Source of the DNA: an uncultured Caproiciproducens sp. | GTDB taxonomy: Bacteria; Bacillota; Clostridia; Oscillospirales; Acutalibacteraceae | DNA: 64,000 nucleotides | Direction of reading: 5' to 3' | Assembly (NCBI RefSeq): GCF_963664915.1 | Contig: NZ_OY761810.1 | Location: forward strand, 1 to 64,000 | In this document: positions 22,815 through 39,482 of the stretch, one piece after another | How the letters are laid out: the number at the start of each line of letters is the position of its first letter | How positions within the stretch are numbered: the first letter of the stretch is position 1 | Translations under genes and position numbers: made by a program | Notes under the pieces: model-generated | Told to the model about the DNA's origin: nothing | Seen by the model: the letters and a program-made list of their open reading frames with translations, nothing else | The model's database searches: none

Positions 22815-22891
<77 letters not shown>

Positions 22892-26095: not shown

Positions 26096-26154
26096 GATAT
26101 ATAAAACCTTTCTATCGTTCATAAAAATATGATTTATCTTTTGTTACTGAATGA

Positions 26155-26547: not shown

Positions 26548-26581
26548 AATAATAAAACGCTCCTTATATTAATTTGTATTT

Positions 26582-26665: not shown

Positions 26666-26685
26666 ACATCTATAATCTGCCTCCT

Positions 26686-27018
26686 TTACGTATTACATAG
26701 GTTTTCATTCTTACATTTTAGATATTCCTCTTTGTCGGTCTTATAAGACGGGAGTTCAATTAATTTTTGCTGAAGGTACTTCCAAAGCTCTTCGTGATTC
26801 TGTTTGAATTGATCACTTATTCGGTAGTGTGTCCATTGTGCTTCTTTAAAACCGACAACAATGCCGCAATTTTTCAGAGTCGTTAGGTGCCGGGAAGCAT
26901 TAGATTGAGTCATTTTCAGTGCAGATTCAATCTCACATACGCACATTTCGTTTTCCAACAGCAATGACAAAATTCTCAGTCTGCTTTCCTCTGACAATGC
27001 TTTGAATAAATCCACCAT
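26686..27018 (-). CDS. arsR: ArsR-family repressor of the arsDA operon
   Basis: Winged-helix metalloregulator of about 110 residues. MCVCEIE near residue 30 is the classical ELCVC-type As(III) site at the DNA-recognition helix, followed by MTQSNASRHLTTLKNCG. Two further cysteines lie in the C-terminal tail (YLKCKNENLCNT). ATG 27018 has GAGGTG upstream; GTG 27027 is the alternative. A TCATATATGA palindrome lies just upstream. As(III) binding would release DNA and induce arsD, arsA and the HesB-like gene. Confidence 0.9.
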   Translation of the reverse strand: MVDLFKALSEESRLRILSLLLENEMCVCEIESALKMTQSNASRHLTTLKNCGIVVGFKEAQWTHYRISDQFKQNHEELWKYLQQKLIELPSYKTDKEEYLKCKNENLCNT

Positions 27019-27045
27019 ATTCCTCACCTCAACATCTTTATATGC

Positions 27046-27055: not shown

Positions 27056-27094
27056 ATATACTATGCGTGAATAAAACTATTTGCTACAATAAAT

Positions 27095-28735
27095 TTATTT
27101 TATATGAATTTTATTGAATTGATTATGGCCGCCCGAAAGATTGTACACTTTCTCAAAACCTTTGTTGAGCAGTATGTTTTGTGCCGCATTGCCGGTAACC
27201 CCTTTATTACAATAAGTCACCGTGACGATTTCCTTATCCAGATTCTCTGCGGCAGCACGCAGCTCAGCGTGAGGGATATTCTGTGCGGTAGAAATATGAT
27301 TTTTTTCGAACTGCACTTGCGTTCGCGCGTCGATCAGCATATATGGTTCACCAGACTGCATCAGACTGTTCAATTTCTCAGCTGTGATCAACGGCCTGCC
27401 ACGCTGAATCGCATTGTCAAGAATCATTCCGGTATACATCACCGGGTCTTTTGTGGTGGAAAACGGTGGAGCATAGGCCAAATCAAGATGAAACAAGTCT
27501 TCGGCCCTGGCTTTATAGGTAATTGCTGTTACAAACACATCAATTCGTTTATCTACGCCTTCGAAACCAACTATTTGGACACCCAGCAGTCTGCCATCTG
27601 ATTGGTCCGCAATGCCTTTGATTACCATCTCTTTGCCGCCCATATACTCAGGCTTGTTCGGCTTGATGTTGTGACATACAACAACGTCGTATCCCTGCTC
27701 TTTGGCTTCCCGTTCAGAAAGTCCGGTCTGAGCAACTGTCAGGCCGAAAATCTGAAATATTCCGGTACCGAGGATGCCCCGGAATGTAAGAGTTCCCCCT
27801 GTAATTACGTCACCTGTGATTCGGCCGGTCTTATTGGCGGTAGAGCCCAACGGACGATACACCGGTTTTCCGGTAACTGCGTGGAATTGTTCGATACAAT
27901 CGCCGCAAGCATAGATATCCGGCAGACTGGTCTGCATCTTCGTGTTCACGCGAATTGCGCCGGTCATACCAAGCTCTATTCCAGCAGTCTTTGCAAGCCC
28001 CACATTGGGGCGCACGCCTGCTGAAACAAGAATCAGTTCCGCATCGACTGTTCTGCCGTCCGATAAGACAACCGCGCTGCCTGTAATTTCCGCAGCGGAA
28101 ACTTCTGTCAGCACGGCCACGCCGTTCTTTTCAAGATGTTCTTTTACGTAAACCGCCATGTCGCTGTCAAGCCCCGGCGTTACCTGCGGCAGTTTTTCAA
28201 TTAGTGTTACGTCAATTCCAAGTCGTTTTAAATTTTCACATACCTCAAGTCCAATGAAGCCGGTGCCGATAATGGCGGCGGCTTTTGGATGAATCCGGTC
28301 TATAAAAGTTTTAATCCGATTCATATCGTTGATATTACGCAAGGTAAAAACATTCGCGCCATCCACGCCCTTGATGGGTGGGACAACCGCTTGAGCACCG
28401 GTGGCAATTACGAGTTTGTCATACCTGTCTGTAAAGACTGCTCCGGTCGAAAGATTCTTAACCGTTAGAACCTTTTGATTCGGAGAAATGGAAAGCACTT
28501 CATGCCGGGTGAAAATATCCACATCATACTTACTCTTAAAGAATGCTGGGTTACGCGGGGTCAGTTCCTCTGCGTTTCCAACCTCGCCGCCAATATAATA
28601 AGGCATACCACAACCGGAATACGAAATAAAACTGTCTTTATCATAGATAATGATTTGGGCATTTTCACTATTCCTTCTTGCTTTTGCTGCGGCAGATGTT
28701 CCGGCGGCTACCGCGCCTATGATTATTAATCGCAT
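27095..28735 (-). CDS. CoA-disulfide/polysulfide reductase with fused rhodanese domain
   Basis: FAD- and NAD(P)H-dependent single-cysteine reductase (about residues 1-450) fused to a rhodanese domain (about 455-546), the Npsr/CoADR-RHD architecture. Seen: FAD motif IIIGAVAAGTSAAAKARR, redox cysteine in SYSGCGMPYY (Cys42), NAD motif AIIGTGFIGLEVCENL, and rhodanese active-site loop YCNKGVTGNAA. Family members reduce CoA-disulfide or polysulfide-type substrates. It is co-transcribed with the upstream arsR (10-base overlap), so its substrate here may be a persulfide or thiol adduct tied to metalloid stress. Confidence 0.9.
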   Translation of the reverse strand: MRLIIIGAVAAGTSAAAKARRNSENAQIIIYDKDSFISYSGCGMPYYIGGEVGNAEELTPRNPAFFKSKYDVDIFTRHEVLSISPNQKVLTVKNLSTGAVFTDRYDKLVIATGAQAVVPPIKGVDGANVFTLRNINDMNRIKTFIDRIHPKAAAIIGTGFIGLEVCENLKRLGIDVTLIEKLPQVTPGLDSDMAVYVKEHLEKNGVAVLTEVSAAEITGSAVVLSDGRTVDAELILVSAGVRPNVGLAKTAGIELGMTGAIRVNTKMQTSLPDIYACGDCIEQFHAVTGKPVYRPLGSTANKTGRITGDVITGGTLTFRGILGTGIFQIFGLTVAQTGLSEREAKEQGYDVVVCHNIKPNKPEYMGGKEMVIKGIADQSDGRLLGVQIVGFEGVDKRIDVFVTAITYKARAEDLFHLDLAYAPPFSTTKDPVMYTGMILDNAIQRGRPLITAEKLNSLMQSGEPYMLIDARTQVQFEKNHISTAQNIPHAELRAAAENLDKEIVTVTYCNKGVTGNAAQNILLNKGFEKVYNLSGGHNQFNKIHIK

Positions 28736-29049
28736 TTTGCACCCTCCTCCGAGTTTTTACAAATACAGGCTTGCTGCTCCGTTGTTATATGAATCAAAAA
28801 CTCTTGTACCTGAGCGGCTTGTTCTGCATTAATGCTATATCTTATCCAATAGCTGTCTTTTCTACTATTTACAAGACCACAATCTGTTAATATCTTCATA
28901 TGATATGATAGAGTTGGCTGAGTACAATGAAATGACTCAAGAATATCGCATGCACACATTTCCCCACAGGATAGCATTTCAACAATTTTCAGTCTTGTTT
29001 CATCGGCTAATGCCTTAAAAACAGGGACGTAACTTGCATGTGTTTTCAT
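28726..29049 (-). CDS. ArsR-family repressor upstream of the CoADR-rhodanese gene
   Basis: Winged-helix protein of 107 residues with EMCACDIL (As(III)-type Cys pair at the recognition helix) and CTQPTLSYHMKIL. Two additional cysteines sit in the tail (ACICKN). It overlaps the reductase gene by 10 bases. A consensus promoter overlapped by an inverted repeat lies directly upstream, so it is likely autoregulated. Confidence 0.9.
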   Translation of the reverse strand: MKTHASYVPVFKALADETRLKIVEMLSCGEMCACDILESFHCTQPTLSYHMKILTDCGLVNSRKDSYWIRYSINAEQAAQVQEFLIHITTEQQACICKNSEEGAKCD

Positions 29050-29106
29050 TCTGTATTTCCTTTCATAAAAGATACCTCCTTAACATTGAAGATTATCTAT
29101 GTGTTT

Positions 29107-29135
29107 ATTATATCCTTTACATAGAGGATTGTCAA
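29107..29135 (-). promoter_or_regulatory. Promoter with overlapping operator for the second arsR
   Basis: Minus strand TTGACA (29130-29135), 17-base spacer, TATAAT (29107-29112). A CTATGT...ACATAG inverted repeat spans the -10 region (about 29098-29125), well placed for repression by the adjacent ArsR. Confidence 0.75.
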
Positions 29136-29198
29136 TATGATTTTAAATAATTAATTTCAAGAAAGCCACAAGGTTGTGGTCTCGATTAAGACTTCATG

Positions 29199-29441
29199 CT
29201 ATTCAGCTACCTTCTGAAGGATTTTAACAATTTCTTTGGGCTTTGGAACCTTTCCAAAAGAAACTACCTTTTCATTGATAACAAGGCCGGGCGTTGACAA
29301 GATGCCATACTTTGCAATCTCTGCGAAATCAGTAATCTTTTCAATCTGTGCTTCTATGCCTAGTTCGGCAAGAGCCACTTTTGTATTTTCCGTCAGAGCC
29401 ACACAATTTTTGCAACCCGGGCCTAAAACTTTGATATTCAT
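29199..29441 (-). CDS. Small thioredoxin-like protein (TM0996/MTH895 type)
   Basis: An 80-residue thioredoxin-fold redox protein with the active site CKNC in GPGCKNCVALTENT and the cis-Pro segment STPGLVINEKVVSFGKVP. This is the minimal cytosolic form often encoded beside ArsP-type permeases and CcdA. It could pass electrons to, or receive them from, the CcdA protein encoded 13 bases upstream. Confidence 0.9.
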   Translation of the reverse strand: MNIKVLGPGCKNCVALTENTKVALAELGIEAQIEKITDFAEIAKYGILSTPGLVINEKVVSFGKVPKPKEIVKILQKVAE

Positions 29442-29454
29442 AATTTATTTCCTC

Positions 29455-30147
29455 CTAAAATCCTAAATAAAACATGTAAAATGCAATCAGCAGGATAACT
29501 GCGCCCATCACATATTTTAGTATCTTACTAAATGTGCCATATTTTCCGCTGGAAGTCACTTTTTTCACAAACCCGATAGAGGTCCCTGCTACCAATACCA
29601 AAAAGCTATGACCAAGCGAGTAAAGCAATAGAAGCAAAACACCCCATGCTACATTTCCACTTCGGGCTACGATGCCAAGCAAAACAACTAATACGGGTGT
29701 TGCACAGGGGGAAGAAAATACCCCCCCTAATATTCCTGCAACGAAAGCTCCTATGTATCCCTTTTTTGTGCTCTTACTTGTGAGATAAGTAGACGGAATA
29801 AAAATATAGATCTCCCATGTTTGCAATGCCATCAGCAACATCAAAACACCTAAAGCGATATACCACCATTTACTTGACGTACCCATTAGCTTACCAAGCA
29901 AGGAAGCGGCTGTGCCGAGTGCTGTGAACGTCGCCGCCATGCCAAGGGCAAAGGCAAGGGACAATCTGAATGCTTTCTTCGGATCGTTATTGCCGGTACC
30001 GCCAACATAACCTATTACAAGCGGAACACTCGACAGCGCACAGGGGGTAACAGAAGTTAATACGCCCGCCAGCAACGCTATCAGCGGCGCGAGCCAAAAG
30101 CTTTGCGAAATAAGTGTTGACAAGGTTTCCAACCATTGGTTGATCAC
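29455..30147 (-). CDS. CcdA/DsbD-type transmembrane thiol-electron carrier
   Basis: Membrane protein of 230 residues with about six helices. Redox motifs are SVTPCALSSVP in the first helix and SSPCATPVL in the fourth, the pair of cysteines that shuttle electrons across the membrane in CcdA. It is flanked by two thioredoxin-like genes (one cytosolic, one membrane-anchored) and overlaps the latter by 4 bases, making a complete relay from inside to outside. Confidence 0.92.
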   Translation of the reverse strand: MINQWLETLSTLISQSFWLAPLIALLAGVLTSVTPCALSSVPLVIGYVGGTGNNDPKKAFRLSLAFALGMAATFTALGTAASLLGKLMGTSSKWWYIALGVLMLLMALQTWEIYIFIPSTYLTSKSTKKGYIGAFVAGILGGVFSSPCATPVLVVLLGIVARSGNVAWGVLLLLLYSLGHSFLVLVAGTSIGFVKKVTSSGKYGTFSKILKYVMGAVILLIAFYMFYLGF

Positions 30148-30767
30148 TCCTTCATCCCCATTTCCTTTAACATAGCCAAAAGCTGTTCTTTTGTTATAAC
30201 GCCTTCATGTGTCGTGAAAATATGTTTGTTTGTATCTTTTGAAGAATACAAATTCAATTGCATTGCTTTTGCATCCTTTGGAGTATACGGATTGCCTTTT
30301 GCATCAAAAAATACTTGAGTCGGAATTACAGTGATCGGATAGCCCTGTGCAAGATTCTGATATTTCCATACATCAACAAATTTAACAATTGCCTTGCCTC
30401 GAAGTTCCTGATTTAATTCTTCCAGAACCGACGCCATCTCTTGGCATGCCTGACAAGAGTCGGAGCCAAAATCAATAACAATTGGAATACCATAAGATTT
30501 TAGTTTCTCAAGATCAAGCTTTTCCGTCACCAGCAAGGTAAAATCAGGATTGGACTCCGCTTTTTTTTCAGATGATTCCGCTTTTGATATAGCATCGAAA
30601 CTGTTTTTGCTTGCTACAGCTTCCCCCGGATGGCTGGAACTGGAACTAAAGAGATCAGCCGGTATCTCGGCTTTCTTTGTGTTTTTGAAAATACCTATAC
30701 CGGCTACAACACACACAAGCAAGACCAGTACCCCTATTTTAAGTGCAGTACTTTTTTTTGATTTCAC
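30144..30767 (-). CDS. Membrane-anchored thioredoxin-like protein
   Basis: About 207 residues: short basic N-terminus, one membrane anchor (IGVLVLLVCVVAGIGIF), a Ser/Glu-rich linker, and an extracytoplasmic thioredoxin domain with CQAC in DFGSDSCQACQEM and a cis-Pro segment VIPTQVFFDAKG. GTG 30767 is preferred (AGGGATGAT upstream); a longer frame from 30803 would overlap the ferredoxin gene. It overlaps ccdA and probably takes electrons from it. Confidence 0.85.
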   Translation of the reverse strand: MKSKKSTALKIGVLVLLVCVVAGIGIFKNTKKAEIPADLFSSSSSHPGEAVASKNSFDAISKAESSEKKAESNPDFTLLVTEKLDLEKLKSYGIPIVIDFGSDSCQACQEMASVLEELNQELRGKAIVKFVDVWKYQNLAQGYPITVIPTQVFFDAKGNPYTPKDAKAMQLNLYSSKDTNKHIFTTHEGVITKEQLLAMLKEMGMKE

Positions 30768-30781
30768 ATCATCCCTATCAT

Positions 30782-31030
30782 TCACCCGCAGTTCCCTCCG
30801 CATGAGCAGCCTGACGATTTACTTTTACCGTTATCACCAAAATATGTAATCGCTTCAGCAGGACAAAGATTCCCACAGCCATGACACCCTTGAATGCAGC
30901 CCATTGGATAAATTACCACTGGTTTAGGCGCTTGTTTTTTGTCATATACGCCATGCATACATTTTGAAGTACACGAACCGCACTCAATACAATTATCATA
31001 ATTAATAACAGGATACCAATTCTTAGCCAT
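30782..31030 (-). CDS. 4Fe-4S ferredoxin with Cys-rich tail
   Basis: Ferredoxin-like protein of 82 residues with CIECGSCTSKCMHGVY and CIQGCHGCGNLCPAEAI, two cluster-binding sets with the first interrupted relative to bacterial 2x4Fe-4S ferredoxins. The last residues (GCSCGGNCG) form an extra Cys-Gly tail. Probably an electron carrier for the DGC/lipoyl operon; it precedes the thioredoxin-CcdA genes. Confidence 0.85.
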   Translation of the reverse strand: MAKNWYPVINYDNCIECGSCTSKCMHGVYDKKQAPKPVVIYPMGCIQGCHGCGNLCPAEAITYFGDNGKSKSSGCSCGGNCG

Positions 31031-31143
31031 AATAAATCTTCCTTTACAATAAATTATTTTTTAATAAAACCAAATAAAATACCATTAACAAGCCAGCTTT
31101 ATAAAAAGTGAAGCTGGCCTACCAATGATGTGGGAGTGTAAAT

Positions 31144-31542
31144 CTATATGACCTCGTTTATTAGTGATTCAACCTTATTTGACAGGGCATCAAATCCAGT
31201 TTCATCTGAATAATTTTTATTTTTTTGAATACCGATGTCTTCAGTAACAATGACTTCTTTATCCGGCTCAATATCAACTGATTTTAAAGCTTTACTGGCA
31301 CATGCAACTTTGCATCCGTTAACCGCGATATAAAATTCGGATTTTTTGGCGTTACTAACAATACCCTCAATACCAAGGGGTAATCCAAGAGCGCATACAA
31401 AATTAATATTATCGTGTTTCTGAGCCAGTTGTGTTACACATTTTGTCGTAAGCATACCAATGTTACATGCTCCCGAGCAGGGAAGAAGACCAATTATTTT
31501 TTGGGGACTTGCTTCGCACGGTACATTTGTTTCGTTACTCAT
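31144..31542 (-). CDS. DGC-type (putative zinc-binding) Cys protein, NGC variant
   Basis: A 132-residue protein of the DGC-domain type. The N-terminal LPCSGACNIG (Cys22, Cys26) and the VNGCKVACASKAL block (Cys77, Cys81) are the usual four-cysteine set, though the Asp of the Asp-Gly-Cys motif is Asn. Biochemical role of the family is not established; a zinc or thiophile site is assumed. It is one of four such proteins in this operon and stands 71 bases downstream of lplA. Confidence 0.7.
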   Translation of the reverse strand: MSNETNVPCEASPQKIIGLLPCSGACNIGMLTTKCVTQLAQKHDNINFVCALGLPLGIEGIVSNAKKSEFYIAVNGCKVACASKALKSVDIEPDKEVIVTEDIGIQKNKNYSDETGFDALSNKVESLINEVI

Positions 31543-31613
31543 CTATAACATCCTCCTTTAAATTATTCTTATTTACTTTCTCCCTCTAAAAACGAAATTA
31601 TTCATGTATGGTG

Positions 31614-32594
31614 TCAAAACAAAACGCTGATGAAGTCATCTATACTGATCCCTGAAAAATAGCGGGAGATTTCATACTCTGAAAGACGTTGTCTCACTGC
31701 GCTGACTTGATGTTTTACACCATTGAGGGCATTTTCAATATCAGTAATATCATATTCACCGAAAAAGTCCCCGTATAGACTGACGCCACGTATTTGGCCG
31801 TTGCTTACAGTGAAAAATGCCTCAACGCTTCCTGCCGCAAACTTTTTGCGGTTTGAAAAATTATACTCTGGGGAGCTTCCATAATTCCATTCCCATGTCG
31901 CATATTTCTCTTTTTCAAGCTTTTCAATGTTGGCTGTATCCAGTGTGGTTAAATCGTAAAATTCAAACTCACTGTGAGAACTCCTTATTTGAGATGTAAT
32001 CAATTGTTTGAATTCCGGCAGTGTCAGCGGATTTTTTAGATGCTCCGAAATATTCGTAACCCGGCTCGCAACAGACTGAATACCCTTTCCCTCAAATTTC
32101 GATGCATCAACTTTTAAAGCAGAAGAAATGTTGGAAATACTGGAGTTAAAAAGTAAGGTTCCATGATGCAGGAGTCGGCCCTTGTATCGATACTGCGAGT
32201 TACCCGAGAACTTTTTGCCGTCAATAGTGAGGTCGTTTCGCCCGGAAAGTTTTGCATCTACTGAAAGTTTTTGAAGTACTTCTATAATCGGTGCTGTGTG
32301 CTTCTTGAAATCGAAGCTGCTGCCTTCCCTGTCGTTTACAATAAATGTGTAATTAAGGTTTCCAAGGTCGTGGAATACCGCGCCGCCACCGGTAAGTCTT
32401 CTGACTACCGGAATGTGATGTTCCTTTATGTAGTCAACATTGATTTCCGAGATCGTGTTTTGGTTTTTCCCAACAATGACACTGGGTGCATTCTGCCATA
32501 AAATAAAGAACTCCTGTTTGAAATTCTTCAGCAAATACTCTTCAAGCGCCAGATTACAGTACGGATTATTGCTTTCATTATTGATATAGAACAT
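31614..32594 (-). CDS. lplA: Lipoate-protein ligase
   Basis: Attaches free lipoate, via lipoyl-AMP, to lipoyl domains. The 326-residue protein has the catalytic domain motifs RRLTGGGAVFHDLGNLNYTF and the substrate lysine region DLTIDGKKFSGNSQYR, plus the C-terminal accessory domain (WEWNYGSSPEYNF, which is the LplA-type C-domain). ATG 32594 follows AGAGG; the frame extends 18 codons upstream into the preceding gene. Its only lipoyl acceptor visible in the window is the DGC-GcvH fusion at 33.5 kb, strongly suggesting a dedicated ligase. Confidence 0.93.
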   Translation of the reverse strand: MFYINNESNNPYCNLALEEYLLKNFKQEFFILWQNAPSVIVGKNQNTISEINVDYIKEHHIPVVRRLTGGGAVFHDLGNLNYTFIVNDREGSSFDFKKHTAPIIEVLQKLSVDAKLSGRNDLTIDGKKFSGNSQYRYKGRLLHHGTLLFNSSISNISSALKVDASKFEGKGIQSVASRVTNISEHLKNPLTLPEFKQLITSQIRSSHSEFEFYDLTTLDTANIEKLEKEKYATWEWNYGSSPEYNFSNRKKFAAGSVEAFFTVSNGQIRGVSLYGDFFGEYDITDIENALNGVKHQVSAVRQRLSEYEISRYFSGISIDDFISVLF

Positions 32595-32620
32595 TGAAAA
32601 ACCTCTGTGTATTCGTATTT

Positions 32621-33094
32621 TTAAGAGCACCCACAACTGCAACCGCAACCACAGTCTGATTTTTTGCCGTTGGACTTACCCTCTGTGTCTGTTTTCAAGA
32701 TTTCATCAATTTTTGTTTTTATCTCAATTGCCACTTTATCAACCATTTCTCTATGGTCATCATTCAATGCCCTGGTTGACAATGCGCCAGACTCCGCTGC
32801 TTCTTTCCCGATAATATCCGACACGTCGATTGCACAAGAAACCTTGCCGCTGTATTTTTCCGTGGCTCGCTTAGCGCAGCATTTTGAGCAGCCGTCAACC
32901 GCAATGGTCGGGTATTCTTCTGCAAAGCCTCTTTCTTCCTCCCCACCTGCAAGATAAAGGGGGAGGCAGATCGTCACAGCTCCGTCCGCTCTTTCTTCAA
33001 GCATTTTTCTTGTGGCAAGTCTTGATATGGTTCCCCCAAGGCAATCCTCTCCACTGCACGATACAATTCCGATTTTTAATTCATTGTCAGCCAT
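32621..33094 (-). CDS. DGC-domain Cys protein with CGCGCSCGC tail
   Basis: A 157-residue DGC-type protein: Cys13 and Cys18 in VSCSGEDCLGG, then AVDGCSKCCAKRA (Cys69, Cys72, Cys73). The C-terminus adds a helical stretch and ends in DCGCGCSCGCS, five closely spaced cysteines like a metallothionein-type tail. It lies 4 bases after the next DGC gene, so these are co-translated. A metal or metalloid ligand role is inferred from cysteine spacing. Confidence 0.75.
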   Translation of the reverse strand: MADNELKIGIVSCSGEDCLGGTISRLATRKMLEERADGAVTICLPLYLAGGEEERGFAEEYPTIAVDGCSKCCAKRATEKYSGKVSCAIDVSDIIGKEAAESGALSTRALNDDHREMVDKVAIEIKTKIDEILKTDTEGKSNGKKSDCGCGCSCGCS

Positions 33095-33097
33095 TTC

Positions 33098-33499
33098 TTA
33101 GCCCTCCTTACTAAAAGCATTCACTTTTTCCGCAATTTCATCAGCGATTTCATCAACAATGCTCCAGCCTTCTTCGGTAAGCTCCGTAGCGGTACCGGGC
33201 TTTGCACCTTTGTGCTTTCTAAATGTATCGAGAACTCTCCGCTTTTCTATAATATCTCCGCCTGCAAGTTCAACGCTTTTGGCAGAGCACATGGCTGGGC
33301 AGCCGTCAAGAGTAATGCATTTTTTACCTTTAATCAATTCATTTGCTTCATCATCTCCGGTTACGATATAAGCAAGACACACAGTATCTGCTTTATCCGG
33401 GCAAAGCTCCTTCACAACTTTCAATGCGCTCTCTCTGCCAACTAGCCCGTAAACCTTACCCATACCGCTGCATGGAATGACATTAATCTTTTCGGACAT
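33098..33499 (-). CDS. DGC-domain Cys protein
   Basis: A 133-residue DGC-type protein with IPCSGMG (Cys10), a lone CLAY cysteine, and TLDGCPAMCSAKS (Cys67, Cys71). Relative to its siblings the second N-terminal cysteine is missing (GMGKVYG). ATG 33499 is chosen; a TTG at 33511 in frame is possible. The start overlaps the end of the DGC-GcvH fusion gene by 17 bases. Confidence 0.72.
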   Translation of the reverse strand: MSEKINVIPCSGMGKVYGLVGRESALKVVKELCPDKADTVCLAYIVTGDDEANELIKGKKCITLDGCPAMCSAKSVELAGGDIIEKRRVLDTFRKHKGAKPGTATELTEEGWSIVDEIADEIAEKVNAFSKEG

Positions 33500-34346
33500 G
33501 AAACTCATCAACCTTTCGCTTTAATATTTTAAAATACCCATCAAATTCAAGAAGCAGTTCCTTGTCACTTTCAAAATCACTGAGCTCTATATCAGCAATC
33601 CAGCCTTTTTCATAAGGATTTTTATTAATGAATTCAGGAGCAGAGTCAAGCTTGTCGTTTACCGCAATGATTTTTCCTGATACCGGAGACACCACTTCGA
33701 AAACGGCTTTTCCGGATTCGACGGTTCCTAGTTCACCAAATTGCTCGACTTCGCTTCCAACCGACGGAGGAGTGAAAAACATGATATCGGATAGGCTTTG
33801 CTGAACAAAATCCGTCACGCCCACTCTTGCTATATTGCCGGAGATATATGCCCAGCAGTCATTTTCATTAAAATAGAAACCCTCCTTGGGCACTCTGAAA
33901 ATGAATTTGTCTTTTTTATATGTCTCATAATCGAAGTGCTCAGGAAATGCAAATTTATGATCAACATCTTCTGTTAGTTTTGGCTCTTTTAATAAATCTT
34001 CGGCCACCGCATGGGCAAGCTGTAATTCTTTGTCTCCAAGTCTTAACAATGCATTAATCTCAATATCTCTGCTTTTTGCTTCTTCCGTGACATTGATCTT
34101 ATTCGCCACTTTGAGGTTCTTTTCAGCGGCAAGTTTGCTTGCACAGCGTGTAGCACAGCCATCAATGACGAGGAGGGGCTTTTCCTGCGCAATTTTACTG
34201 TATCTTGCATCTGCAACACGGTATAAAACAGGGCAGATAATTTCACTTTCGGAATTTTCTGTAAGTATTACCGCGATTTCTTTTGAAATGCATCCGGCGC
34301 ATTTATCTAATCCGTTGCATGGGAGTACCGCATAGGATTTACTCAT
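33483..34346 (-). CDS. DGC domain fused to a GcvH-like lipoyl carrier
   Basis: A 287-residue fusion. Residues 1-120 are a DGC domain with LPCNGLDKCAGC (Cys10, Cys16, Cys19), IDGCATRCASK (Cys64, Cys68). Residues about 145-270 are a glycine-cleavage-H-like lipoyl domain: VTDFVQQSLSDIMFF, GTVESGKAVFEV with the modifiable Lys213, and SPVSGKIIAVND. No glycine cleavage P or T gene is present. With lplA and lpd in the same operon the lipoyl arm must serve another reaction, perhaps receiving or reducing a thiophile delivered by the DGC part. ATG 34346 follows GGAAGCGG; the frame extends 38 codons. Confidence 0.85.
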   Translation of the reverse strand: MSKSYAVLPCNGLDKCAGCISKEIAVILTENSESEIICPVLYRVADARYSKIAQEKPLLVIDGCATRCASKLAAEKNLKVANKINVTEEAKSRDIEINALLRLGDKELQLAHAVAEDLLKEPKLTEDVDHKFAFPEHFDYETYKKDKFIFRVPKEGFYFNENDCWAYISGNIARVGVTDFVQQSLSDIMFFTPPSVGSEVEQFGELGTVESGKAVFEVVSPVSGKIIAVNDKLDSAPEFINKNPYEKGWIADIELSDFESDKELLLEFDGYFKILKRKVDEFHVRKD

Positions 34347-34632
34347 TTCCGCCCGCTTCCTTTCGAATCGCTTTGATGTGAGCTGTGGTTTCAGTTTTAT
34401 TAGGGAAATCAATCGCATCAAGTCCGCAGGCCTTACCGCAGGCACGACAGAACACAACACAATTGTTTGGATTTTTTACAATAAGCTTTCTTTCTGCGTT
34501 CTCATTTACCTCATATACATTGTGAGGACAAAATTTTACGCATTCCATACAGTTATTGCACTTATCATAATCAATTCGGGGGCTCCAATCGATTTTCTCT
34601 CTCTCGACTCCCATAAATGTAGATTCACTCAT
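34339..34632 (-). CDS. Dicluster 4Fe-4S ferredoxin
   Basis: A 97-residue protein with CNNCMECVKFCPHNVY and CVVFCRACGKACGLDAI, two cluster motifs. The N-terminus (WSPRIDYDKC) is typical of the small ferredoxins adjoining Hdr-type proteins. It overlaps the fusion gene by 8 bases and the HdrA-like gene by 1, indicating tight translational coupling in a redox module. Confidence 0.88.
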   Translation of the reverse strand: MSESTFMGVEREKIDWSPRIDYDKCNNCMECVKFCPHNVYEVNENAERKLIVKNPNNCVVFCRACGKACGLDAIDFPNKTETTAHIKAIRKEAGGNE

Positions 34633-35015
34633 TATTCTTCATCTCCTTCAAATCCCAATTCAGTAAGCGCCGCTTTAACTACTTCAAAGGCTTTATCGTT
34701 GGTCATGTCCCGAATGTCGAGCATAACGCTATCCTTTTCTACATCAAGTCCGGCATCTTTAAAAGCTTGCTTAAACATTTTTTTCTGCATGTTTGGCGCA
34801 CAAGCTCCGATGATAACCTTTCTATGAGCCTTTAAGAAATCGGCAAGGAAACGATCGCCATCCTCTTCACAAAGCTGCGGATGAATGATGCCGTATTCTA
34901 CTGGCAGTTCCACTCTTACCTGGTTGATAAAGTCCCAAATATCCATAGCCTTAAATCCGGGGCACTTTCCTGTGCATACGCACATAATAAAACCATAACG
35001 TTCTTTTTCTTCCAT
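34632..35015 (-). CDS. HdrA N-terminal-domain-like protein
   Basis: A 127-residue protein resembling the stand-alone N-terminal module of heterodisulfide reductase subunit A: MCVCTGKCPG (Cys12, Cys14, Cys18), QLCEEDG (Cys49) in the position of MCSDPG, and VIIGACAPNMQKKMF (Cys72) matching VVAACSPRMHEPTF. In HdrA this module binds a 4Fe-4S cluster. There is no FAD domain, HdrB or HdrC here. Likely an electron-transfer component with the ferredoxin encoded next to it. Similarity judged by motif only. Confidence 0.65.
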   Translation of the reverse strand: MEEKERYGFIMCVCTGKCPGFKAMDIWDFINQVRVELPVEYGIIHPQLCEEDGDRFLADFLKAHRKVIIGACAPNMQKKMFKQAFKDAGLDVEKDSVMLDIRDMTNDKAFEVVKAALTELGFEGDEE

Positions 35016-35035
35016 AGTAGACTCTCCTTAAAATT

Positions 35036-36430
35036 TTATAGTTTATGAATGGCTCTGCCCAACAGATCTCCGCAGGCTTCCCAAATTGCTTCACCGAGAG
35101 AAGGGTGGGGATGGATCATATCGGCAAGGTCATTCGCTTTTGCCTTTAACGTAATTGCGAGTGTAAGCTCTGAAATCATTTCGGATGCATTCGCACCCAA
35201 TATTTGTCCGCCGATGATGGTATTATTCTGATCGGCGACCACCTTGACAAAGCCTTCACGCTCGCCCAAGGTTAAGGCACGGCCATTGTTTCTAAAGTTA
35301 AATCTGCCTACCTTCACCGCCATGCCTGTTTGTTTTGCCTCTTCCTCCGTCATACCAACCGATGCTATTTCAGGGTTCGTGTAAATGCATGCAGGAACGG
35401 CGCTATAATTGACTTTGCTGCTGATTCCCAAAGCATTTTCAGCAGCGACTTTTCCCTCCATGAAGGCGAGATGGGCAAGCAGCTTGCCTCCCACAAGGTC
35501 TCCGGCAGCATAGATCCCTTTGATATTCGTTTCCATGTTCGCATCTACAATAACCGCACCTTTTTCAATGTGCAGGGACAAGTTTTGGAACGCGTCCGAA
35601 TTCAGTTTTCTGCCTACCGCAACCAAAACCTTCTCACAGGATTGAATAGACACTTTTTCGCCTACAGTGTAGGTCACGGCAAGGCCATCCTCTGTCTGTT
35701 GTATTTCGACTACCGATGCGGACAGTTTGAAGGAAACGCCCTGACGCTTCATGATTTTCAGTAGTTCGGTGGCAATTTCACTATCTTCATTGGGTAGTAT
35801 CCTGTCCTGCAACTCAATAATTGTCACTTTCACTCCAGAAGAATGAAGCATTGCGGCAAATTCAAGTCCGATAACCCCTGCACCGATAATAACGATGCTT
35901 TCGGGAAGTACATCCAAACTCAATGCTTCGTTGCTTGTGATAACACCATTTAAATCAATTCCTTTAATATTTGGTAGCAGCGGAACTGCACCTGTGGTTA
36001 AAATCATTTTTTCACAATTTATTTGTATTTCTTCTTCATCTGTTTGAACAAGAAACTTTTTATCGGATAGCACCGTGCCCTTTCCTTTTAGTACAGTCAC
36101 TCCCCTTGCACCAAGCAGCTGTTCCAGCCCGGAGTTGAGGCTTTTGACCACACGATCTTTCCGGTTAACCGCAACATCCCAGTTGATACTATCCATACGG
36201 CTTTTTATACCGAATTCCTTTGACCTTTTAATGACTGTGGCTGTTTTGGCAGTTTTCAGCAGTGCCTTTGTCGGAATACACCCGATATTGAGGCATACAC
36301 CACCTAATTCCTTTTCCTCGATAAGAACCACCTCTGCGCCAAGCTGTGCGGCTCTGATCGCCGCAACATACCCGGCAGGGCCTCCGCCGAGGATGCCTAT
36401 ATCAGCAGATATTTCCTTCATACGATTCAC
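35036..36430 (-). CDS. lpd: Dihydrolipoyl dehydrogenase
   Basis: Flavoprotein of 464 residues reoxidising or reducing lipoyl dithiols with NAD(H). Seen: FAD motif GILGGGPAGYVAAIRA, disulfide GGVCLNIGCIPTK (Cys46, Cys51), NAD motif VIIGAGVIGLEFAA, GDLVGGKLLAHLAFMEG, and the catalytic His-Glu dyad in IHPHPSLGEAIWEA. GTG 36430 has AAGAAGG upstream; ATG 36421 is the alternative. No pyruvate or oxoglutarate dehydrogenase or glycine cleavage genes are near, so it is probably dedicated to the DGC-lipoyl fusion protein. Confidence 0.93.
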   Translation of the reverse strand: MNRMKEISADIGILGGGPAGYVAAIRAAQLGAEVVLIEEKELGGVCLNIGCIPTKALLKTAKTATVIKRSKEFGIKSRMDSINWDVAVNRKDRVVKSLNSGLEQLLGARGVTVLKGKGTVLSDKKFLVQTDEEEIQINCEKMILTTGAVPLLPNIKGIDLNGVITSNEALSLDVLPESIVIIGAGVIGLEFAAMLHSSGVKVTIIELQDRILPNEDSEIATELLKIMKRQGVSFKLSASVVEIQQTEDGLAVTYTVGEKVSIQSCEKVLVAVGRKLNSDAFQNLSLHIEKGAVIVDANMETNIKGIYAAGDLVGGKLLAHLAFMEGKVAAENALGISSKVNYSAVPACIYTNPEIASVGMTEEEAKQTGMAVKVGRFNFRNNGRALTLGEREGFVKVVADQNNTIIGGQILGANASEMISELTLAITLKAKANDLADMIHPHPSLGEAIWEACGDLLGRAIHKL

Positions 36431-36488
36431 ATAAACACCTTCTTTTCAGCTGCTTTTTGATAGTAAAGCCGCAAAGATTGTAACTGTT

Positions 36489-37028
36489 TCACTTAGCGGC
36501 ATTTTCAGCATTGGCATAGATTTCTTTCACTTCATCTTTTGACACTAGCTTTGATAAAATATAGGCCATTATAATGATTCCCGGGATATCTACAGCCAGC
36601 CTTGTAAAAGCAAACTTCGCGCCAAGTGATGCCGTTTCAAACAGAAACATGGGGATTTTCGTGGTTGACCACGCACCGATAAAAATAAGTATATTGCTGA
36701 ACTTTACCCCCTTTTTCATGAAGACTGCCGCCACCGGAAACGCTCCGTAAAGCGGGCCTGCCGCTGCTGATCCCAATATAATCGCAAGAACAATGCCTTT
36801 TAACCCTGATTCTTCTCCCATATATTTGATCATGGTTTCCCGCGGGATCCATACATCTAAGAGGCCAAGCAGGATAAAGACGGGCGGGATCACGAGAAGC
36901 ATTTCTTTAAAAGAATACGCCGAAATACCCAAAGCCTTGAACCCGATTTGGCTATTAATAATTGTAAGAATGCCGATTGCTGCTGCTGTAATGATAAACG
37001 CTCTGTATCTTTTTAAAATTGCTTTCAT
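36489..37028 (-). CDS. Permease, C-terminal half of a split ArsP-like pair
   Basis: Membrane protein of 179 residues with four to five helices, containing GSAAAGPLYGAFPVAAVFMKKG followed by IFIGAWSTTKIPMFLFE. The GPxxGAFPVAA motif is characteristic of the predicted permease family that includes ArsP. With the preceding gene (4-base overlap) it makes the equivalent of one full-length permease. Confidence 0.75.
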   Translation of the reverse strand: MKAILKRYRAFIITAAAIGILTIINSQIGFKALGISAYSFKEMLLVIPPVFILLGLLDVWIPRETMIKYMGEESGLKGIVLAIILGSAAAGPLYGAFPVAAVFMKKGVKFSNILIFIGAWSTTKIPMFLFETASLGAKFAFTRLAVDIPGIIIMAYILSKLVSKDEVKEIYANAENAAK

Positions 37029-37510
37029 ATGCCACCCACCACCAGTCCAATAATCGCTGCCACCAAAAAGGAAAAGATAAATGCAAGTACATTTCTTAAA
37101 ACGGTCAGTTTTTTACCGAAATATTTCATCTCGACCGGCATCGTTACGACACCAACCATCATCAGTGCGGAAACGAATGCACCGATCTGCATATAACCGG
37201 CCCCGCTTTGCAAAAGCATGGCAGCAGTAGGGAATGCAACAAACCCCGGTATCAGTGTAATTGCACCAATGACAGCGGCAAGGACAACCCCAAGCCAGCC
37301 GGAACCGGCGCCAATAATTTTGGAAATCACTTCGGTATTTAACACCGCAAGCAATACCCCGACAAACAATATGACAACTAAAAACTCGGGCAGGATATTT
37401 TCAAATGCTTTCCAAGCCTTTTTGAGTGACCTCTTTGTTTTCTTTTTATCTTTGAGAAAAGAAAGTGCCAAAAGCAATATGGTCACACCATACAAGATAT
37501 ACGTATCCAA
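37025..37510 (-). CDS. Permease, N-terminal half of a split ArsP-like pair
   Basis: Membrane protein of 161 residues with four helices: GAITLIPGFVAFPTAAMLLQSGAG and VGVVTMPVEMKYFGKK. It starts with a short hydrophobic helix and a basic loop (LKDKKKTKRSLKKAW). It lacks the Cys-rich TPFCSCSS motif of the neighbouring full-length permease. It overlaps the next gene by 4 bases, so a heterodimer is likely. Confidence 0.75.
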   Translation of the reverse strand: MDTYILYGVTILLLALSFLKDKKKTKRSLKKAWKAFENILPEFLVVILFVGVLLAVLNTEVISKIIGAGSGWLGVVLAAVIGAITLIPGFVAFPTAAMLLQSGAGYMQIGAFVSALMMVGVVTMPVEMKYFGKKLTVLRNVLAFIFSFLVAAIIGLVVGGI

Positions 37511-37521
37511 CTTTGTACCTC

Positions 37522-38526
37522 CTACATCAAAAAATAACCAAACGCGTTAAAGGCATATCCGATGATAATAATGCCGACAGTGACAATGCTTATAAAAATG
37601 GCCAGAAGCTTTGGTTTTACCACTTTTTTCAGCATGATGATTGAGGGAAGAGAGAGGGCCGTTACTGCCATCATAAAGGACAGAACAGTGCCTAACCCCA
37701 CACCTTTTGAAACGAGGGCTTCGGCAATCGGCAGCGTTCCAAAAATATCAGCGTACATTGGTATACCGACAACTGTTGCAAGAAGCACCGAGAATGGTTT
37801 ATCCTGCCCAAGAACAGCCGTTATAATGTCCTGCGGAATCCAGTTGTGGATTGCCGCCCCGATTCCTACTCCAACCAGCACGTACAGCCAAACTTTTTTA
37901 ACAATGCCAAGTACTTGATCTTTCGAAAATTCTATCCGGTCACGCCGGGTAAGTTCTGTTTGCTCAATGTCCATTACCTTATTGCTGAAAACAAACGATT
38001 CCACATATTTTTCAAGTTTAGATTTCTCTATGATGGTGCCGGATACAACCGCAAGCACAACACCCACAATCACATAAGCAATTGCAATCTTCCAATTAAA
38101 AATACTTGCAATCAGAAGAAGGGAAGCCAAATCCACAAGAGGGGACGAAATCAGGAATGAAAAAGTCACGCCAAGTGGCAGCCCTGCGTTGGTAAATCCG
38201 ATAAACAACGGAATGGAAGAACAAGAACAAAACGGCGTCACCGTTCCTAGCAGTGCTCCCAAAATATTTGCCCAGATTCCATGGAAATGACCCAGTATCT
38301 TTTTCGTGCGCTCCGGCGGAAAAAAACTTTGAATGTAGGAAATGATGAAGATTAGTACTGATAAAAGAATGAAGATCTTAACGGTGTCATAAATAAAAAA
38401 GTGGATGCTGCCGCCAAGTTTTTCGTTCACATCTAGTCCGAAAACATTCTGGACCAGGAGTTTGGTTAAATCCGATAACCACTGCATTTTGAGCAATTGG
38501 TCATTGAGCCATTCAAATATAAACAT
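37522..38526 (-). CDS. ArsP-type permease
   Basis: Permease of 334 residues with eight or more helices and the hallmark VTPFCSCSSIPLFIGFTNAGLP (split here as TPFCSCSS then IPLFIGF; Cys100 and Cys102), and later GIPMYADIFGTLPIAEALVSKG. Characterised ArsP proteins export trivalent methylated and aromatic arsenicals; other members of the family move other substrates. It directly follows an ArsR gene, so a trivalent arsenical or similar thiophile is the best guess. Confidence 0.82.
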   Translation of the reverse strand: MFIFEWLNDQLLKMQWLSDLTKLLVQNVFGLDVNEKLGGSIHFFIYDTVKIFILLSVLIFIISYIQSFFPPERTKKILGHFHGIWANILGALLGTVTPFCSCSSIPLFIGFTNAGLPLGVTFSFLISSPLVDLASLLLIASIFNWKIAIAYVIVGVVLAVVSGTIIEKSKLEKYVESFVFSNKVMDIEQTELTRRDRIEFSKDQVLGIVKKVWLYVLVGVGIGAAIHNWIPQDIITAVLGQDKPFSVLLATVVGIPMYADIFGTLPIAEALVSKGVGLGTVLSFMMAVTALSLPSIIMLKKVVKPKLLAIFISIVTVGIIIIGYAFNAFGYFLM

Positions 38527-38549
38527 AAAATACTCTCCCGTTTTTTGAC

Positions 38550-38843
38550 TTAATAGTTAGTCTTTGCATATTCCGCTAACAAAATTGTTGCTTGTTCAAA
38601 ACCTTTTTGATTTAGTGAGTAGTGCATCCATTTTCCATCACGGCGACTATCAACAAATCCAGATTCGCATAATATTTTCATATGGTGCGATAATGTGGAT
38701 TGTACTATATTTAGGTCTTCCAATAGTTTACATGCGCATTTTTCTCCACTTTGCAGCATTTCAATAATCATCAATCGGTTTGGATCGCAGAGTGCTTTAA
38801 ACACAATTGCATCATTCTCATATTTATTTTCCAAAAATTCCAC
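38550..38843 (-). CDS. ArsR-family repressor heading the permease/lipoyl operon
   Basis: Winged-helix regulator of 97 residues with EKCACKLLEDL (Cys pair at the As(III)-type position) and VQSTLSHHMKILCESG (third cysteine at the end of the recognition helix), then a wing SRRDGKWMHYSLN. First gene of a run of about a dozen co-directional genes down to 29.2 kb. The upstream promoter is overlapped by an inverted repeat. Confidence 0.9.
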   Translation of the reverse strand: MEFLENKYENDAIVFKALCDPNRLMIIEMLQSGEKCACKLLEDLNIVQSTLSHHMKILCESGFVDSRRDGKWMHYSLNQKGFEQATILLAEYAKTNY

Positions 38844-38858
38844 CTCGAATCTATTTTT

Positions 38859-38891
38859 ATCGATATGTTATATTATATGCATCATATCGAT
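38859..38891. promoter_or_regulatory. ArsR operator over the permease/lipoyl promoter
   Basis: Inverted repeat ATCGATATG (38859-38867) and CATATCGAT (38883-38891), flanking the -10 box and reaching into the spacer. The ATCGATAT-type core suits an ArsR dimer; binding is inferred. Confidence 0.7.
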
Positions 38892-38900
38892 ATTTGTCAA
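38872..38900 (-). promoter_or_regulatory. Consensus promoter of the permease/lipoyl operon
   Basis: Minus strand TTGACA (38895-38900), 17-base spacer, TATAAT (38872-38877). A near-ideal vegetative promoter, so tight repression would be needed to keep the operon off. Confidence 0.85.
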
Positions 38901-38988
38901 TATGCAAAATGCTGCTTTTGGAGCTTTTAAAGTTTATAAAGTCAGTAGCACTTAAGATTTTAGATAAACCGGAAGCACTTCCGCTTTT

Positions 38989-39264: not shown

Positions 39265-39305
39265 TTATTTTAAAGATGAAATTTTAAGAGGACAACCTAA
39301 AATAT

Positions 39306-39476: not shown

Positions 39477-39482
39477 GTTCGA

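What the first reader, a model, noticed from the sequence alone, without database searches (positions are those of the whole stretch)
29199..38843. A lipoyl-carrier redox system built around four DGC-domain proteins under ArsR control
Seen directly: one minus-strand run with an ArsR-type repressor, ArsP-type permease, split permease, dihydrolipoyl dehydrogenase, HdrA-N-like module, ferredoxin, DGC-GcvH fusion with a lipoyl-type lysine (Lys213), two DGC proteins, lipoate-protein ligase, a fourth DGC protein, ferredoxin, membrane thioredoxin, CcdA and a small thioredoxin. No glycine cleavage P/T, 2-oxoacid dehydrogenase or HdrB/C genes. Known: a lipoyl arm needs a ligase and a dihydrolipoyl dehydrogenase, both present, and vicinal dithiols bind As(III) tightly; lipoate-binding GcvH-like carriers also serve sulfur oxidation in sHdr systems. 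Inference: the arm carries or reduces a thiophilic substrate (trivalent or organic arsenical, or persulfide) handed on by DGC proteins and exported by the permeases.
Basis: partly seen in the sequence, partly recalled or inferred. Interest (0 to 1): 0.88.

Follow-up and report, generated by a model that had tools for sequence, protein, structure and literature searches.

The report
Arsenic-linked lipoyl-carrier gene system
Anaerobic bacteria and some archaea carry a conserved set of genes, usually near arsenic-resistance genes, whose central protein bears the attachment site for lipoate, the dithiol cofactor that arsenic classically poisons, so these microbes may have turned arsenic's target into a tool for handling it.

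Summary
One minus-strand run (38843-29199) encodes ArsR, ArsP, two half-ArsP permeases, Lpd, an HdrA-N-like protein, ferredoxin, a DGC-GcvH fusion, DGC2, DGC3, LplA, a fourth DGC, a second ferredoxin, thioredoxin, CcdA and ArsE. A perfect sigma-70 promoter with an inverted repeat around its -10 heads it; an ArsR/ArsD/ArsA operon follows. The genome's only GcvH domain and only lipoate ligase lie here; no E2, glycine decarboxylase P or HdrB was found. The real unit is a five-gene core (HdrAN, Fd1, DGC-GcvH, DGC2, DGC3), complete in 78 of 80 fetched loci and in one order in 75, from Clostridia to Asgard archaea. The lipoyl lysine and four DGC cysteines are invariant (81 of 81). Acr3, ArsM, ArsA or ArsD lie nearby in 43 of 80 loci, ArsR in 61. 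The GcvH domains lack the HEW glutamate of glycine cleavage. Best reading: an ArsR-controlled anaerobic system in which ferredoxin/HdrA-N (and Lpd where present) keep a lipoyl dithiol reduced to bind or reduce arsenicals and pass them to efflux. The arsenic link is strong; substrate, lipoylation and reaction are inferred.

The parts
38858..38900 (-). Operon promoter TTGACA-17-TATAAT (38900-38872); inverted repeat TATCGATATG-N15-CATATCGATA (38858-38892) flanks its -10, a probable ArsR operator
   Evidence: 12 of 12 consensus match; 10-nt arms 100% complementary; sequence read
38550..38843 (-). ArsR/SmtB-family repressor (ArsR1)
   Evidence: PF01022 8.2e-15; NF033788 90.4 bits, cutoff 55
37522..38526 (-). 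ArsP-family permease
   Evidence: PF03773 233.5 bits, cutoff 32.3; below SaoE and SO_0444 cutoffs
37025..37510 (-). Half-size ArsP_1 permease A (hpA)
   Evidence: PF03773 32.5 bits, cutoff 32.3; occurs with hpB in 9 of 80 loci
36489..37028 (-). Half-size ArsP_1 permease B (hpB)
   Evidence: PF03773 53.2 bits
35036..36430 (-). Dihydrolipoyl dehydrogenase (Lpd)
   Evidence: TIGR01350 512 bits, cutoff 408.8; in 38 of 80 loci, 33 copies within 2 kb of the core
34632..35015 (-). CORE: HdrA N-terminal-domain-like protein (HdrAN), probable [4Fe-4S] protein
   Evidence: matches only HdrA in PDB: E 2.5e-4 single sequence, 3.4e-4 profile; Cys12,14,18,49,72 invariant in 80 of 80 rows, window included
34339..34632 (-). 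CORE: ferredoxin Fd1 with eight conserved Cys
   Evidence: PF13237 3.5e-8; Cys 25,28,31,35,62,65,69 in 84 of 84 rows and Cys58 in 83
33483..34346 (-). CORE: DGC-GcvH fusion, 287 aa from ATG 34346, with lipoyl-type Lys213
33098..33511 (-). CORE: DGC2 protein
   Evidence: PF08859 44.3 bits, cutoff 27
32621..33094 (-). CORE: DGC3 protein; Cys-rich tail CGCGCSCGCS
   Evidence: PF08859 64.9 bits; Cys13,43,69,73 80 of 80 rows, tail Cys150 and Cys152 each in 31 of 80; AF2 pLDDT 86, no clear PDB fold match
31614..32648 (-). Lipoate-protein ligase LplA, the only PF21948 match in the genome
   Evidence: TIGR00545 436.5 bits, cutoff 280
31144..31542 (-). DGC4 protein
   Evidence: PF08859 78.6 bits; in 12 of 80 loci
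30782..31030 (-). Ferredoxin Fd2 with Cys-rich tail
   Evidence: PF13237 1.1e-6; in 10 of 80 loci, all 10 copies within 2 kb of the core
30144..30803 (-). Membrane-anchored thioredoxin-fold protein (anchor read from the hydrophobic N-terminal stretch)
   Evidence: PF00085 2.6e-10; sequence
29455..30147 (-). CcdA/DsbD-type membrane protein (ArsG-like)
   Evidence: PF02683 2.4e-25; ArsG NF040495 39.3 bits, below cutoff 200
29199..29441 (-). ArsE/MTH895-type small thioredoxin
   Evidence: TIGR00412 98.2 bits, cutoff 62
29085..29136 (-). Promoter TTGACA-17-TATAAT (29135-29107) with inverted repeat of 18-nt arms, head of the second operon
   Evidence: 12 of 12 match; arms 78% complementary
28726..29049 (-). 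ArsR2 repressor
   Evidence: PF01022 2.4e-16
27095..28735 (-). CoA-disulfide-reductase-like protein with rhodanese domain
   Evidence: TIGR03385 434 bits, below cutoff 578.8; PF00581 1.5e-16
26686..27027 (-). ArsR3 repressor
   Evidence: PF01022 4.3e-17
26155..26547 (-). ArsD arsenic metallochaperone
   Evidence: PF06953 157.6 bits, cutoff 27
24353..26122 (-). ArsA arsenical pump-driving ATPase
   Evidence: TIGR04291 845 bits, cutoff 650

Best explanation
The locus encodes a dedicated, ArsR-controlled, anaerobic arsenical-processing system. Its working unit is the five-gene core HdrAN, Fd1, DGC-GcvH, DGC2 and DGC3. LplA attaches lipoate to Lys213 of the fusion (inferred from the site and the ligase). 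Electrons from ferredoxin enter through Fd1 and the [4Fe-4S]-type HdrAN protein (inferred), and from NADH through Lpd where it is present (established Lpd chemistry). They keep the lipoyl arm as a dithiol. The dithiol binds a trivalent arsenical, or reduces a pentavalent one and holds the product (inferred). The four-cysteine DGC proteins, some with Cys-rich tails, relay the metalloid (inferred) to ArsD/ArsA, Acr3, ArsP or the ArsE/F/G-like exporters (their families are shown, their coupling is not). Electron flow should run from ferredoxin/NADH toward arsenic, because the As(V)/As(III) potential is far above that of ferredoxin (recalled). Shown here: gene content, linkage, conservation, the promoter with a likely operator, and the absence of the other lipoyl users that were searched for.
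Against: 30 of 80 loci show none of Acr3/ArsM/ArsA/ArsD/ArsP/ArsC, and 8 of those show no ArsR or ArsE either; two of the 8 lie on contigs under 5 kb, six do not. In the class sample only 1 of the 7 fusion genomes has an acr3 match. Acr3, ArsA, ArsD, ArsM and ArsP do not thin out clearly with distance within 8 kb of the core, so they adjoin it rather than form one fixed operon. Neighbourhood is not function, and ArsR-family regulators also sense other metals and sulfur species. Lpd (38 of 80) and LplA (19 of 80) are not universal neighbours. The GcvH-domain Cys164, which could have given a third thiol, is Cys in only 59 of 81. The DGC domain has no known biochemistry and no clear PDB fold match. 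Nothing shows that Lys213 is lipoylated.
Confidence: 0.5

Rival explanations
1. Non-redox sequestration: the dihydrolipoyl arm and the DGC/Cys-rich proteins only chelate As(III) and hand it to efflux pumps; HdrAN/Fd merely keep the thiols reduced, like a ferredoxin-thioredoxin reductase.
For: Vicinal dithiols bind As(III) tightly (established). DGC3, Fd2 and ArsD end in Cys-rich tails (in DGC3 homologues two tail Cys each in 31 of 80 rows). ArsD and ArsA sit next door. Efflux genes are common in the loci.
Against: Simple chelation does not need a strictly conserved ferredoxin/HdrA-N pair. HdrAN is the most conserved of the aligned core proteins (59-90% identity to the window in A5; mean column identity 67% against 58% for A2 and 34% for A4), with five invariant Cys, which suggests catalysis or specific electron transfer.
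Confidence: 0.2
2. Sulfur or persulfide chemistry: an sHdr-like system in which the lipoyl arm carries sulfane sulfur, with arsenic genes nearby because sulfide/thioarsenic stress co-occurs.
For: Lipoate-binding GcvH-like carriers with Hdr proteins serve sulfur oxidation (PMC6067878, passages read). Cysteine-desulfurase-family genes in 16 of 80 loci. Rhodanese-domain protein in the downstream operon.
Against: No CCG/HdrB domain in the genome. The fusion lacks the conserved C-terminal Cys described for LbpA (versus passages). NF045810 30.2 bits, below 150. Arsenic efflux and methylase genes are frequent neighbours.
Confidence: 0.12
3. Handling of other thiophilic metals or organometals (antimony, mercury, copper/zinc) with arsenic genes as generic neighbours, comparable to the SAO organometallic systems.
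For: PF03773 permeases include Cu/Zn-type and SAO-type members, and the window permease has weak matches to SaoE (114 bits, cutoff 325) and SO_0444 (110 bits, cutoff 300). DGC proteins are annotated as putative zinc-binding (recalled).
Against: Acr3 in 30, ArsM in 11, ArsA in 12 and ArsD in 10 of 80 loci point to arsenic (or antimony) specifically. Mercury or copper resistance families were not searched for in the loci.
Confidence: 0.1
4. A lipoyl-dependent metabolic enzyme (one-carbon or glycine chemistry) unrelated to arsenic that merely sits in resistance islands.
For: The carrier is a true GcvH fold, and 8 of 80 loci have no arsenic-type neighbour.
Against: No GDC-P or E2 in the genome. 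HEW histidine and glutamate lost in 81 of 81. Arsenic-type neighbours recur in several phyla.
Confidence: 0.06

Closest known systems
sHdr sulfur-oxidation system with lipoate-binding proteins (LbpA) and LplA-like ligases
   Same: A GcvH-fold lipoyl carrier with Hdr-related Fe-S electron transfer and a linked lipoate ligase, outside 2-oxoacid and glycine metabolism.
   Different: Only the HdrA N-terminal domain, no HdrB-type domain; carrier fused to a DGC domain, without the C-terminal conserved Cys; arsenic rather than sulfur-oxidation neighbours.
Glycine cleavage H-protein (GcvH)
   Different: HEW motif His/Glu lost, fused to DGC, separated from canonical GcvH by one branch (SH-aLRT 100), no P-protein in the genome.
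ArsEFG organoarsenical resistance module
   Same: ArsE-type small thioredoxin and a CcdA-type membrane protein in one operon; ArsF-family-like genes in 15 of 80 related loci.
   Different: CcdA scores 39.3 bits, far below the ArsG cutoff of 200; no ArsF-family match for the window thioredoxin; the lipoyl core is not part of ArsEFG as I recall it.
ArsDA/Acr3/ArsP arsenic efflux operons
   Same: ArsR control, ArsD, ArsA and ArsP present.
   Different: The five-gene lipoyl/Fe-S/DGC core is not a known ars component in anything that my searches listed or that I recall.
GcvH-L/LplA2/sirtuin-macrodomain operons (Streptococcus, Staphylococcus; recalled) and the GcvH-related protein NF045810 (Haft, recalled)
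   Different: Sirtuin or macrodomain genes were not among the gene clusters identified (not searched for specifically); NF045810 at 30.2 bits, below 150. The Haft and Tolstoy 2025 paper could not be read.

Membership tests
Glycine cleavage system | GcvH fold with lipoyl lysine | tested here: met
Glycine cleavage system | GcvH equivalog score (TIGR00527) | tested here: not met
   104.3 bits, cutoff 115.85
Glycine cleavage system | HEW motif whose Glu contacts the aminomethyl cargo (role recalled) | tested here: not met
   30 best-scoring class GcvH: H 30 of 30 and E 29 of 30; fusion D/E at 163 and C/V/S/F at 164 in 81 of 81
Glycine cleavage system | P-protein in the genome | tested here: not met
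   PF02347 0 matches
Glycine cleavage system | T-protein in the genome | not tested
   GCV_T not searched
sHdr sulfur oxidation | HdrB-type CCG domain | tested here: not met
   PF02754 0 matches in genome
sHdr sulfur oxidation | LbpA with two conserved Cys (near the N- and C-terminus; some archaeal LbpAs lack them) | tested here: not met
   GcvH part has only Cys164 (59 of 81) and no conserved C-terminal Cys; LbpA definition from passages of PMC6067878
sHdr sulfur oxidation | Linked lipoate ligase | tested here: met
   LplA 31614-32648; 19 of 80 loci
HdrA | N-terminal domain cysteines | tested here: met
   Cys12, 14, 49, 72 align with HdrA Cys in 7bkb/9sfi; the match itself is weak (E 2.5e-4)
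HdrA | FAD/thioredoxin-reductase and ferredoxin domains in the same chain | tested here: not met
   127 aa, HdrA match covers only residues 5-94
DGC domain proteins (PF08859) | Family score over cutoff | tested here: met
   66.3, 44.3, 64.9, 78.6 bits, cutoff 27
DGC domain proteins (PF08859) | Zinc binding | not testable with these tools
   no metal assay; function of the family unknown
ArsP permease (PF03773) | Family score over cutoff | tested here: met
   233.5, 32.5 and 53.2 bits, cutoff 32.3
ArsEFG | ArsE-type thioredoxin | tested here: met
   TIGR00412 98.2 bits, cutoff 62
ArsEFG | ArsG permease equivalog score | tested here: not met
   NF040495 39.3 bits, cutoff 200
ArsEFG | ArsF-family protein | tested here: not met
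   no NF040494 match for the window thioredoxin at E 0.01
Arsenic resistance operon | ArsA and ArsD | tested here: met
   TIGR04291 845 bits, cutoff 650; PF06953 157.6 bits, cutoff 27
SAO system | SaoE equivalog score | tested here: not met
   114.1 bits, cutoff 325

The most novel reading that the evidence does not exclude
An ancient, undescribed anaerobic enzyme system, present from Clostridia to Asgard archaea, does chemistry on arsenic held by a swinging lipoyl dithiol. Low-potential electrons from ferredoxin, through a stand-alone HdrA-N protein, reduce the lipoyl-bound arsenical (pentavalent inorganic or methyl/aryl arsenicals, or even As-C or As-S bond cleavage), and DGC proteins deliver the product to exporters. 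The classical poison target of arsenic would be its detoxification cofactor.
Probability: 0.33. Interest if true: 0.92.

Novelty: new variant of a known kind. Interest (0 to 1): 0.78.

Why it matters
Arsenite poisons cells by binding the lipoyl dithiol of 2-oxoacid dehydrogenases (established). Here an anaerobe-type genome without an E2 of such a dehydrogenase keeps its only lipoate ligase beside a carrier embedded in arsenic genes. If the reading is true, it would add a cofactor-dependent branch to arsenic detoxification, give functions to the orphan DGC and HdrA-N-like families, suggest candidates for unexplained anaerobic steps of the arsenic cycle (reduction or cleavage of organoarsenicals without oxygen), and widen non-classical lipoate biology beyond sulfur oxidation. 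Homologues in Clostridium ljungdahlii, Acetobacterium and Desulfosporosinus should make it testable.

Tried and rejected
Third-thiol idea: in the first 8 homologues a Cys replaces the HEW glutamate in 8 of 8, suggesting a tris-thiolate arsenic site.

Selenocysteine variants: no in-frame TGA at a conserved Cys of the core was seen in the tblastn alignments of 80 loci.

Plasmid carriage: 153 plasmid records match, but 0 of them (of 72,556 searched) cover 80% or more of the fusion; the 30 listed rows match only the GcvH half.

Genome-level association with acr3: not supportive by itself, 1 of 7 fusion genomes.

misread 13 of 30 canonical GcvH loci (strand) and was redone; that script picked reading frames with a motif that asks for [HDN][EDCT]W, so the residues at those two positions were partly preset (all 30 loci gave a frame). 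The 30 are the best-scoring matches, not a random draw. One search aligned two unrelated proteins and was of no use. In one search the HdrAN ORF of L014 was dropped by my overlap filter; one search shows it present.

Rows dropped or subsets used: one search kept the best 80 of 102 relatives, found by two peptide patterns. Neighbour counts rest on BLAST to one or two reference proteins per family (E <= 1e-8, half the reference covered); only representatives were checked against curated models. One search left out DGC2/DGC3 matches under 30% identity. L085 was left out of the reference list for an unknown residue but counted. Alignments for modelling or profiles used 50 (A2), 29 (A4) and 30 (A5) sequences. 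The GcvH tree used 41 of 81 fusions and 30 canonical; both trees are quick searches.

Literature: ten searches. In what they listed I saw no paper on a DGC-GcvH or lipoyl arsenic system, but three of them listed only a small part of what they found (20 of 29,079, 20 of 3,717, 15 of 62; one search listed 13 of 14). One search returned three papers, at least two of them on diguanylate cyclases or c-di-GMP by title or abstract, another meaning of DGC. The library lacks most subscription papers, so 'undescribed' is only as good as these searches.

Full report
OBSERVATION. In order of transcription: ArsR1 38550-38843; ArsP 37522-38526; two half-size ArsP_1 proteins; dihydrolipoyl dehydrogenase (TIGR01350, 512 bits, cutoff 408.8); HdrA-N-like protein; ferredoxin; DGC-GcvH; DGC2; DGC3; LplA (436.5 bits, cutoff 280); DGC4; a second ferredoxin; a membrane-anchored thioredoxin; CcdA; and an ArsE-type thioredoxin (TIGR00412, 98.2 bits, cutoff 62). 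The largest gap in the run is 113 bp (from the coordinates). A 12-of-12 sigma-70 promoter lies at 38900-38872, just upstream of ArsR1, with a perfect 10-nt inverted repeat flanking its -10 hexamer. The only other 12-of-12 promoter in the scanned stretch 24000-39500 heads the next operon at 29135-29107, again with an inverted repeat. That operon is ArsR2, a CoA-disulfide-reductase/rhodanese protein, ArsR3, ArsD and ArsA (845 bits, cutoff 650). Promoter-like sites as a whole are no more frequent than in shuffles (34 against 32.1), so only the two perfect ones are worth weight.

A LIPOATE ECONOMY WITH ONE KNOWN CUSTOMER. In the 3.13 Mb one-contig genome the fusion is the only GcvH-domain protein and the window LplA the only PF21948 lipoate ligase. 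There is no 2-oxoacid dehydrogenase E2, no glycine decarboxylase P, no HdrB-type CCG domain, and no lipoyl synthase above cutoff (one 26.6-bit match, cutoff 310.25). GCV_T was not searched. Lipoate is therefore probably scavenged and used only here (inference). Among the seven fusion-bearing genomes of a 391-genome class sample, the fusion is the only GcvH domain in three (G000, G096, G121); the other four have one or two more, so exclusivity is not general.

THE CONSERVED UNIT. A protein search found the fusion at E <= 1e-85 in 7 of 391 class genomes (8 places); two further genomes matched only the GcvH half at about 1e-26. HdrAN was found in the same 7 genomes, 8 of 8 places beside the fusion. 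None of the eight other same-family genomes in the sample has it, so its distribution is patchy. A scan of 84,980 species genomes by two short peptide patterns returned 102 relatives, of which the tool kept 80. By phylum label they are Bacillota 43, Bacteroidota 13, Actinomycetota 5, Promethearchaeota 5, Heimdallarchaeota 1, one each from Pseudomonadota, Chloroflexota, Armatimonadota, Planctomycetota and Thermodesulfobacteriota, and 8 without a label, one of which is a Jordarchaeia bin. The core HdrAN, Fd1, DGC-GcvH, DGC2, DGC3 is complete in 78 of 80; the other two (L082, L086) end at contig edges. The order is the same in 75; in L047, L051 and L052 the two DGC genes come first. The fusion tree needs 9 changes for 10 phylum labels, the least possible, against 27.6 in shuffles, though Bacillota and Bacteroidota need two changes each. 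Most loci are metagenome bins or drafts and can be misassigned, so this shows coherence rather than dates.

NEIGHBOURHOOD. In the 80 loci (1.37 Mb): ArsR 61, Lpd 38, ArsE 38, Acr3 30, ArsC-like 22, CcdA 20, LplA 19, cysteine desulfurase family 16, ArsP 15, ArsF family 15, thioredoxin 13, ArsA 12, DGC4 12, ArsM 11, ArsD 10, half-permeases 9. At least one of Acr3/ArsM/ArsA/ArsD occurs in 43 of 80; with ArsP 46, with ArsC-like genes too 50. Representatives of Acr3 (432.8 and 387.6 bits, cutoff 282.8), ArsM (333.6, cutoff 263) and ArsF family (111.7, cutoff 60) pass their cutoffs; the ArsC-like representative does not (92.9, cutoff 174.3) and is only an LMW-PTP-family protein. Background: Acr3 matches occur in 87 of 391 class genomes, 80 over the cutoff, roughly one copy per 10 Mb by my estimate from the listed genome sizes, yet 11 of 43 Bacillota loci (0.79 Mb) carry it. 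Lpd (33 copies within 2 kb), LplA (14 copies within 2 kb) and Fd2 (10 of 10 within 2 kb) fall off sharply with distance; ArsE, ArsC and ArsR fall off more gently; Acr3, ArsA, ArsD, ArsM and ArsP show no clear fall-off within 8 kb, as expected if ars operons adjoin rather than merge with the core. Against: 30 of 80 loci show none of the six ars genes, and eight of these (L026, L027, L040, L063, L071, L081, L089, L092) show no ArsR or ArsE either; only L040 and L081 of them are on contigs under 5 kb. Only 1 of 7 fusion genomes in the class sample has any acr3, and the window genome has none, so ArsA/ArsP-type export would have to serve there.

MECHANISM. The universal electron partners of the lipoyl arm are HdrAN and Fd1, not Lpd. 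Ferredoxin lies well below lipoamide (lipoamide -0.29 V from PMC6067878, passages; ferredoxin recalled), and As(V)/As(III) lies far above (recalled), so electrons should run toward the arsenical. I propose a ferredoxin-driven (Lpd-assisted where present) lipoyl dithiol that reduces or captures arsenicals, with DGC proteins as relays and ArsD/ArsA, Acr3, ArsP or ArsE/F/G-like proteins as exits. Shown: genes, linkage, conservation, absence of the competing lipoyl users searched for, promoter with operator-like repeat. Inferred: lipoylation, clusters, substrate, direction, hand-off. The arsenic connection I hold at about 0.85; the mechanism at about 0.5.

KNOWN RELATIVES. It works like the sHdr/LbpA system (lipoyl carrier, Hdr-type protein, dedicated ligase), but fails its membership tests (no CCG domain, no C-terminal LbpA cysteine; NF045810 30.2 bits, cutoff 150). 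It is not glycine cleavage (TIGR00527 104.3, cutoff 115.85; no P-protein). The thioredoxin/CcdA/ArsE trio resembles ArsEFG, for which another paper cites a study of roxarsone and nitarsone resistance (PMC9144182, passages and reference title), but fails the ArsG cutoff. The permease is PF03773 but neither SaoE nor SO_0444 by cutoff. Ten paper searches listed no description (see Tried and rejected for their limits); the most relevant unread paper is Haft and Tolstoy 2025 (not held).

VERDICT. Observation confirmed; interpretation partly supported and sharpened: a widespread, strongly linked, apparently undescribed lipoyl/HdrA-N/DGC system associated with arsenic.

Noticed in passing
window 1-1326 (+) and 1203-1578 (-): A recombinase gene (PF07508) overlaps the end of a tmRNA gene, as in a mobile element integrated at tmRNA.
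   Followed up: partly
window 39454-39702 (+): Fragment of a transposase/integrase (rve_2, rve_3; IS3-type by recall) just upstream of the operon promoter; together with the patchy distribution it hints at acquisition.
   Followed up: partly
window 22714-22891 (+): tRNA-Gln and tRNA-Pro genes follow the ars genes downstream, a possible island boundary.
   Followed up: no
window 24014-24319 (-): Small Cys-rich HesB/IscA-like protein directly after ArsA; similar genes occur in L013, L016 and L077. The window copy has no Pfam match at E 0.001.
   Followed up: partly
window 24353-26122 (-): ArsA is present although the genome has no acr3 match; its membrane partner is unclear (ArsB was not searched; ArsP or the half-permeases could serve).
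   Followed up: partly
window 36489-37510 (-): Two overlapping half-size ArsP_1 genes look like a split permease working as a heterodimer; the pair recurs in 9 of 80 loci.
   Followed up: partly
L078:12298-13449, L083:6081-6620 and similar: A cysteine-desulfurase-family gene (TIGR01977, 448.9 bits over cutoff) in 16 of 80 loci and a small Fe-S-domain protein (PF04060) in 12 of 80; both together in 9.
   Followed up: partly
L090:6249-6827 and 12389-12772: An actinobacterial locus holds two extra GcvH-like ORFs beside the fusion; the first lacks the lipoyl lysine context.
   Followed up: no
window 41147-46423 (-): A 1758-aa protein with a signal-like N-terminus and lamin-tail and metallophosphatase domains.
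   Followed up: no
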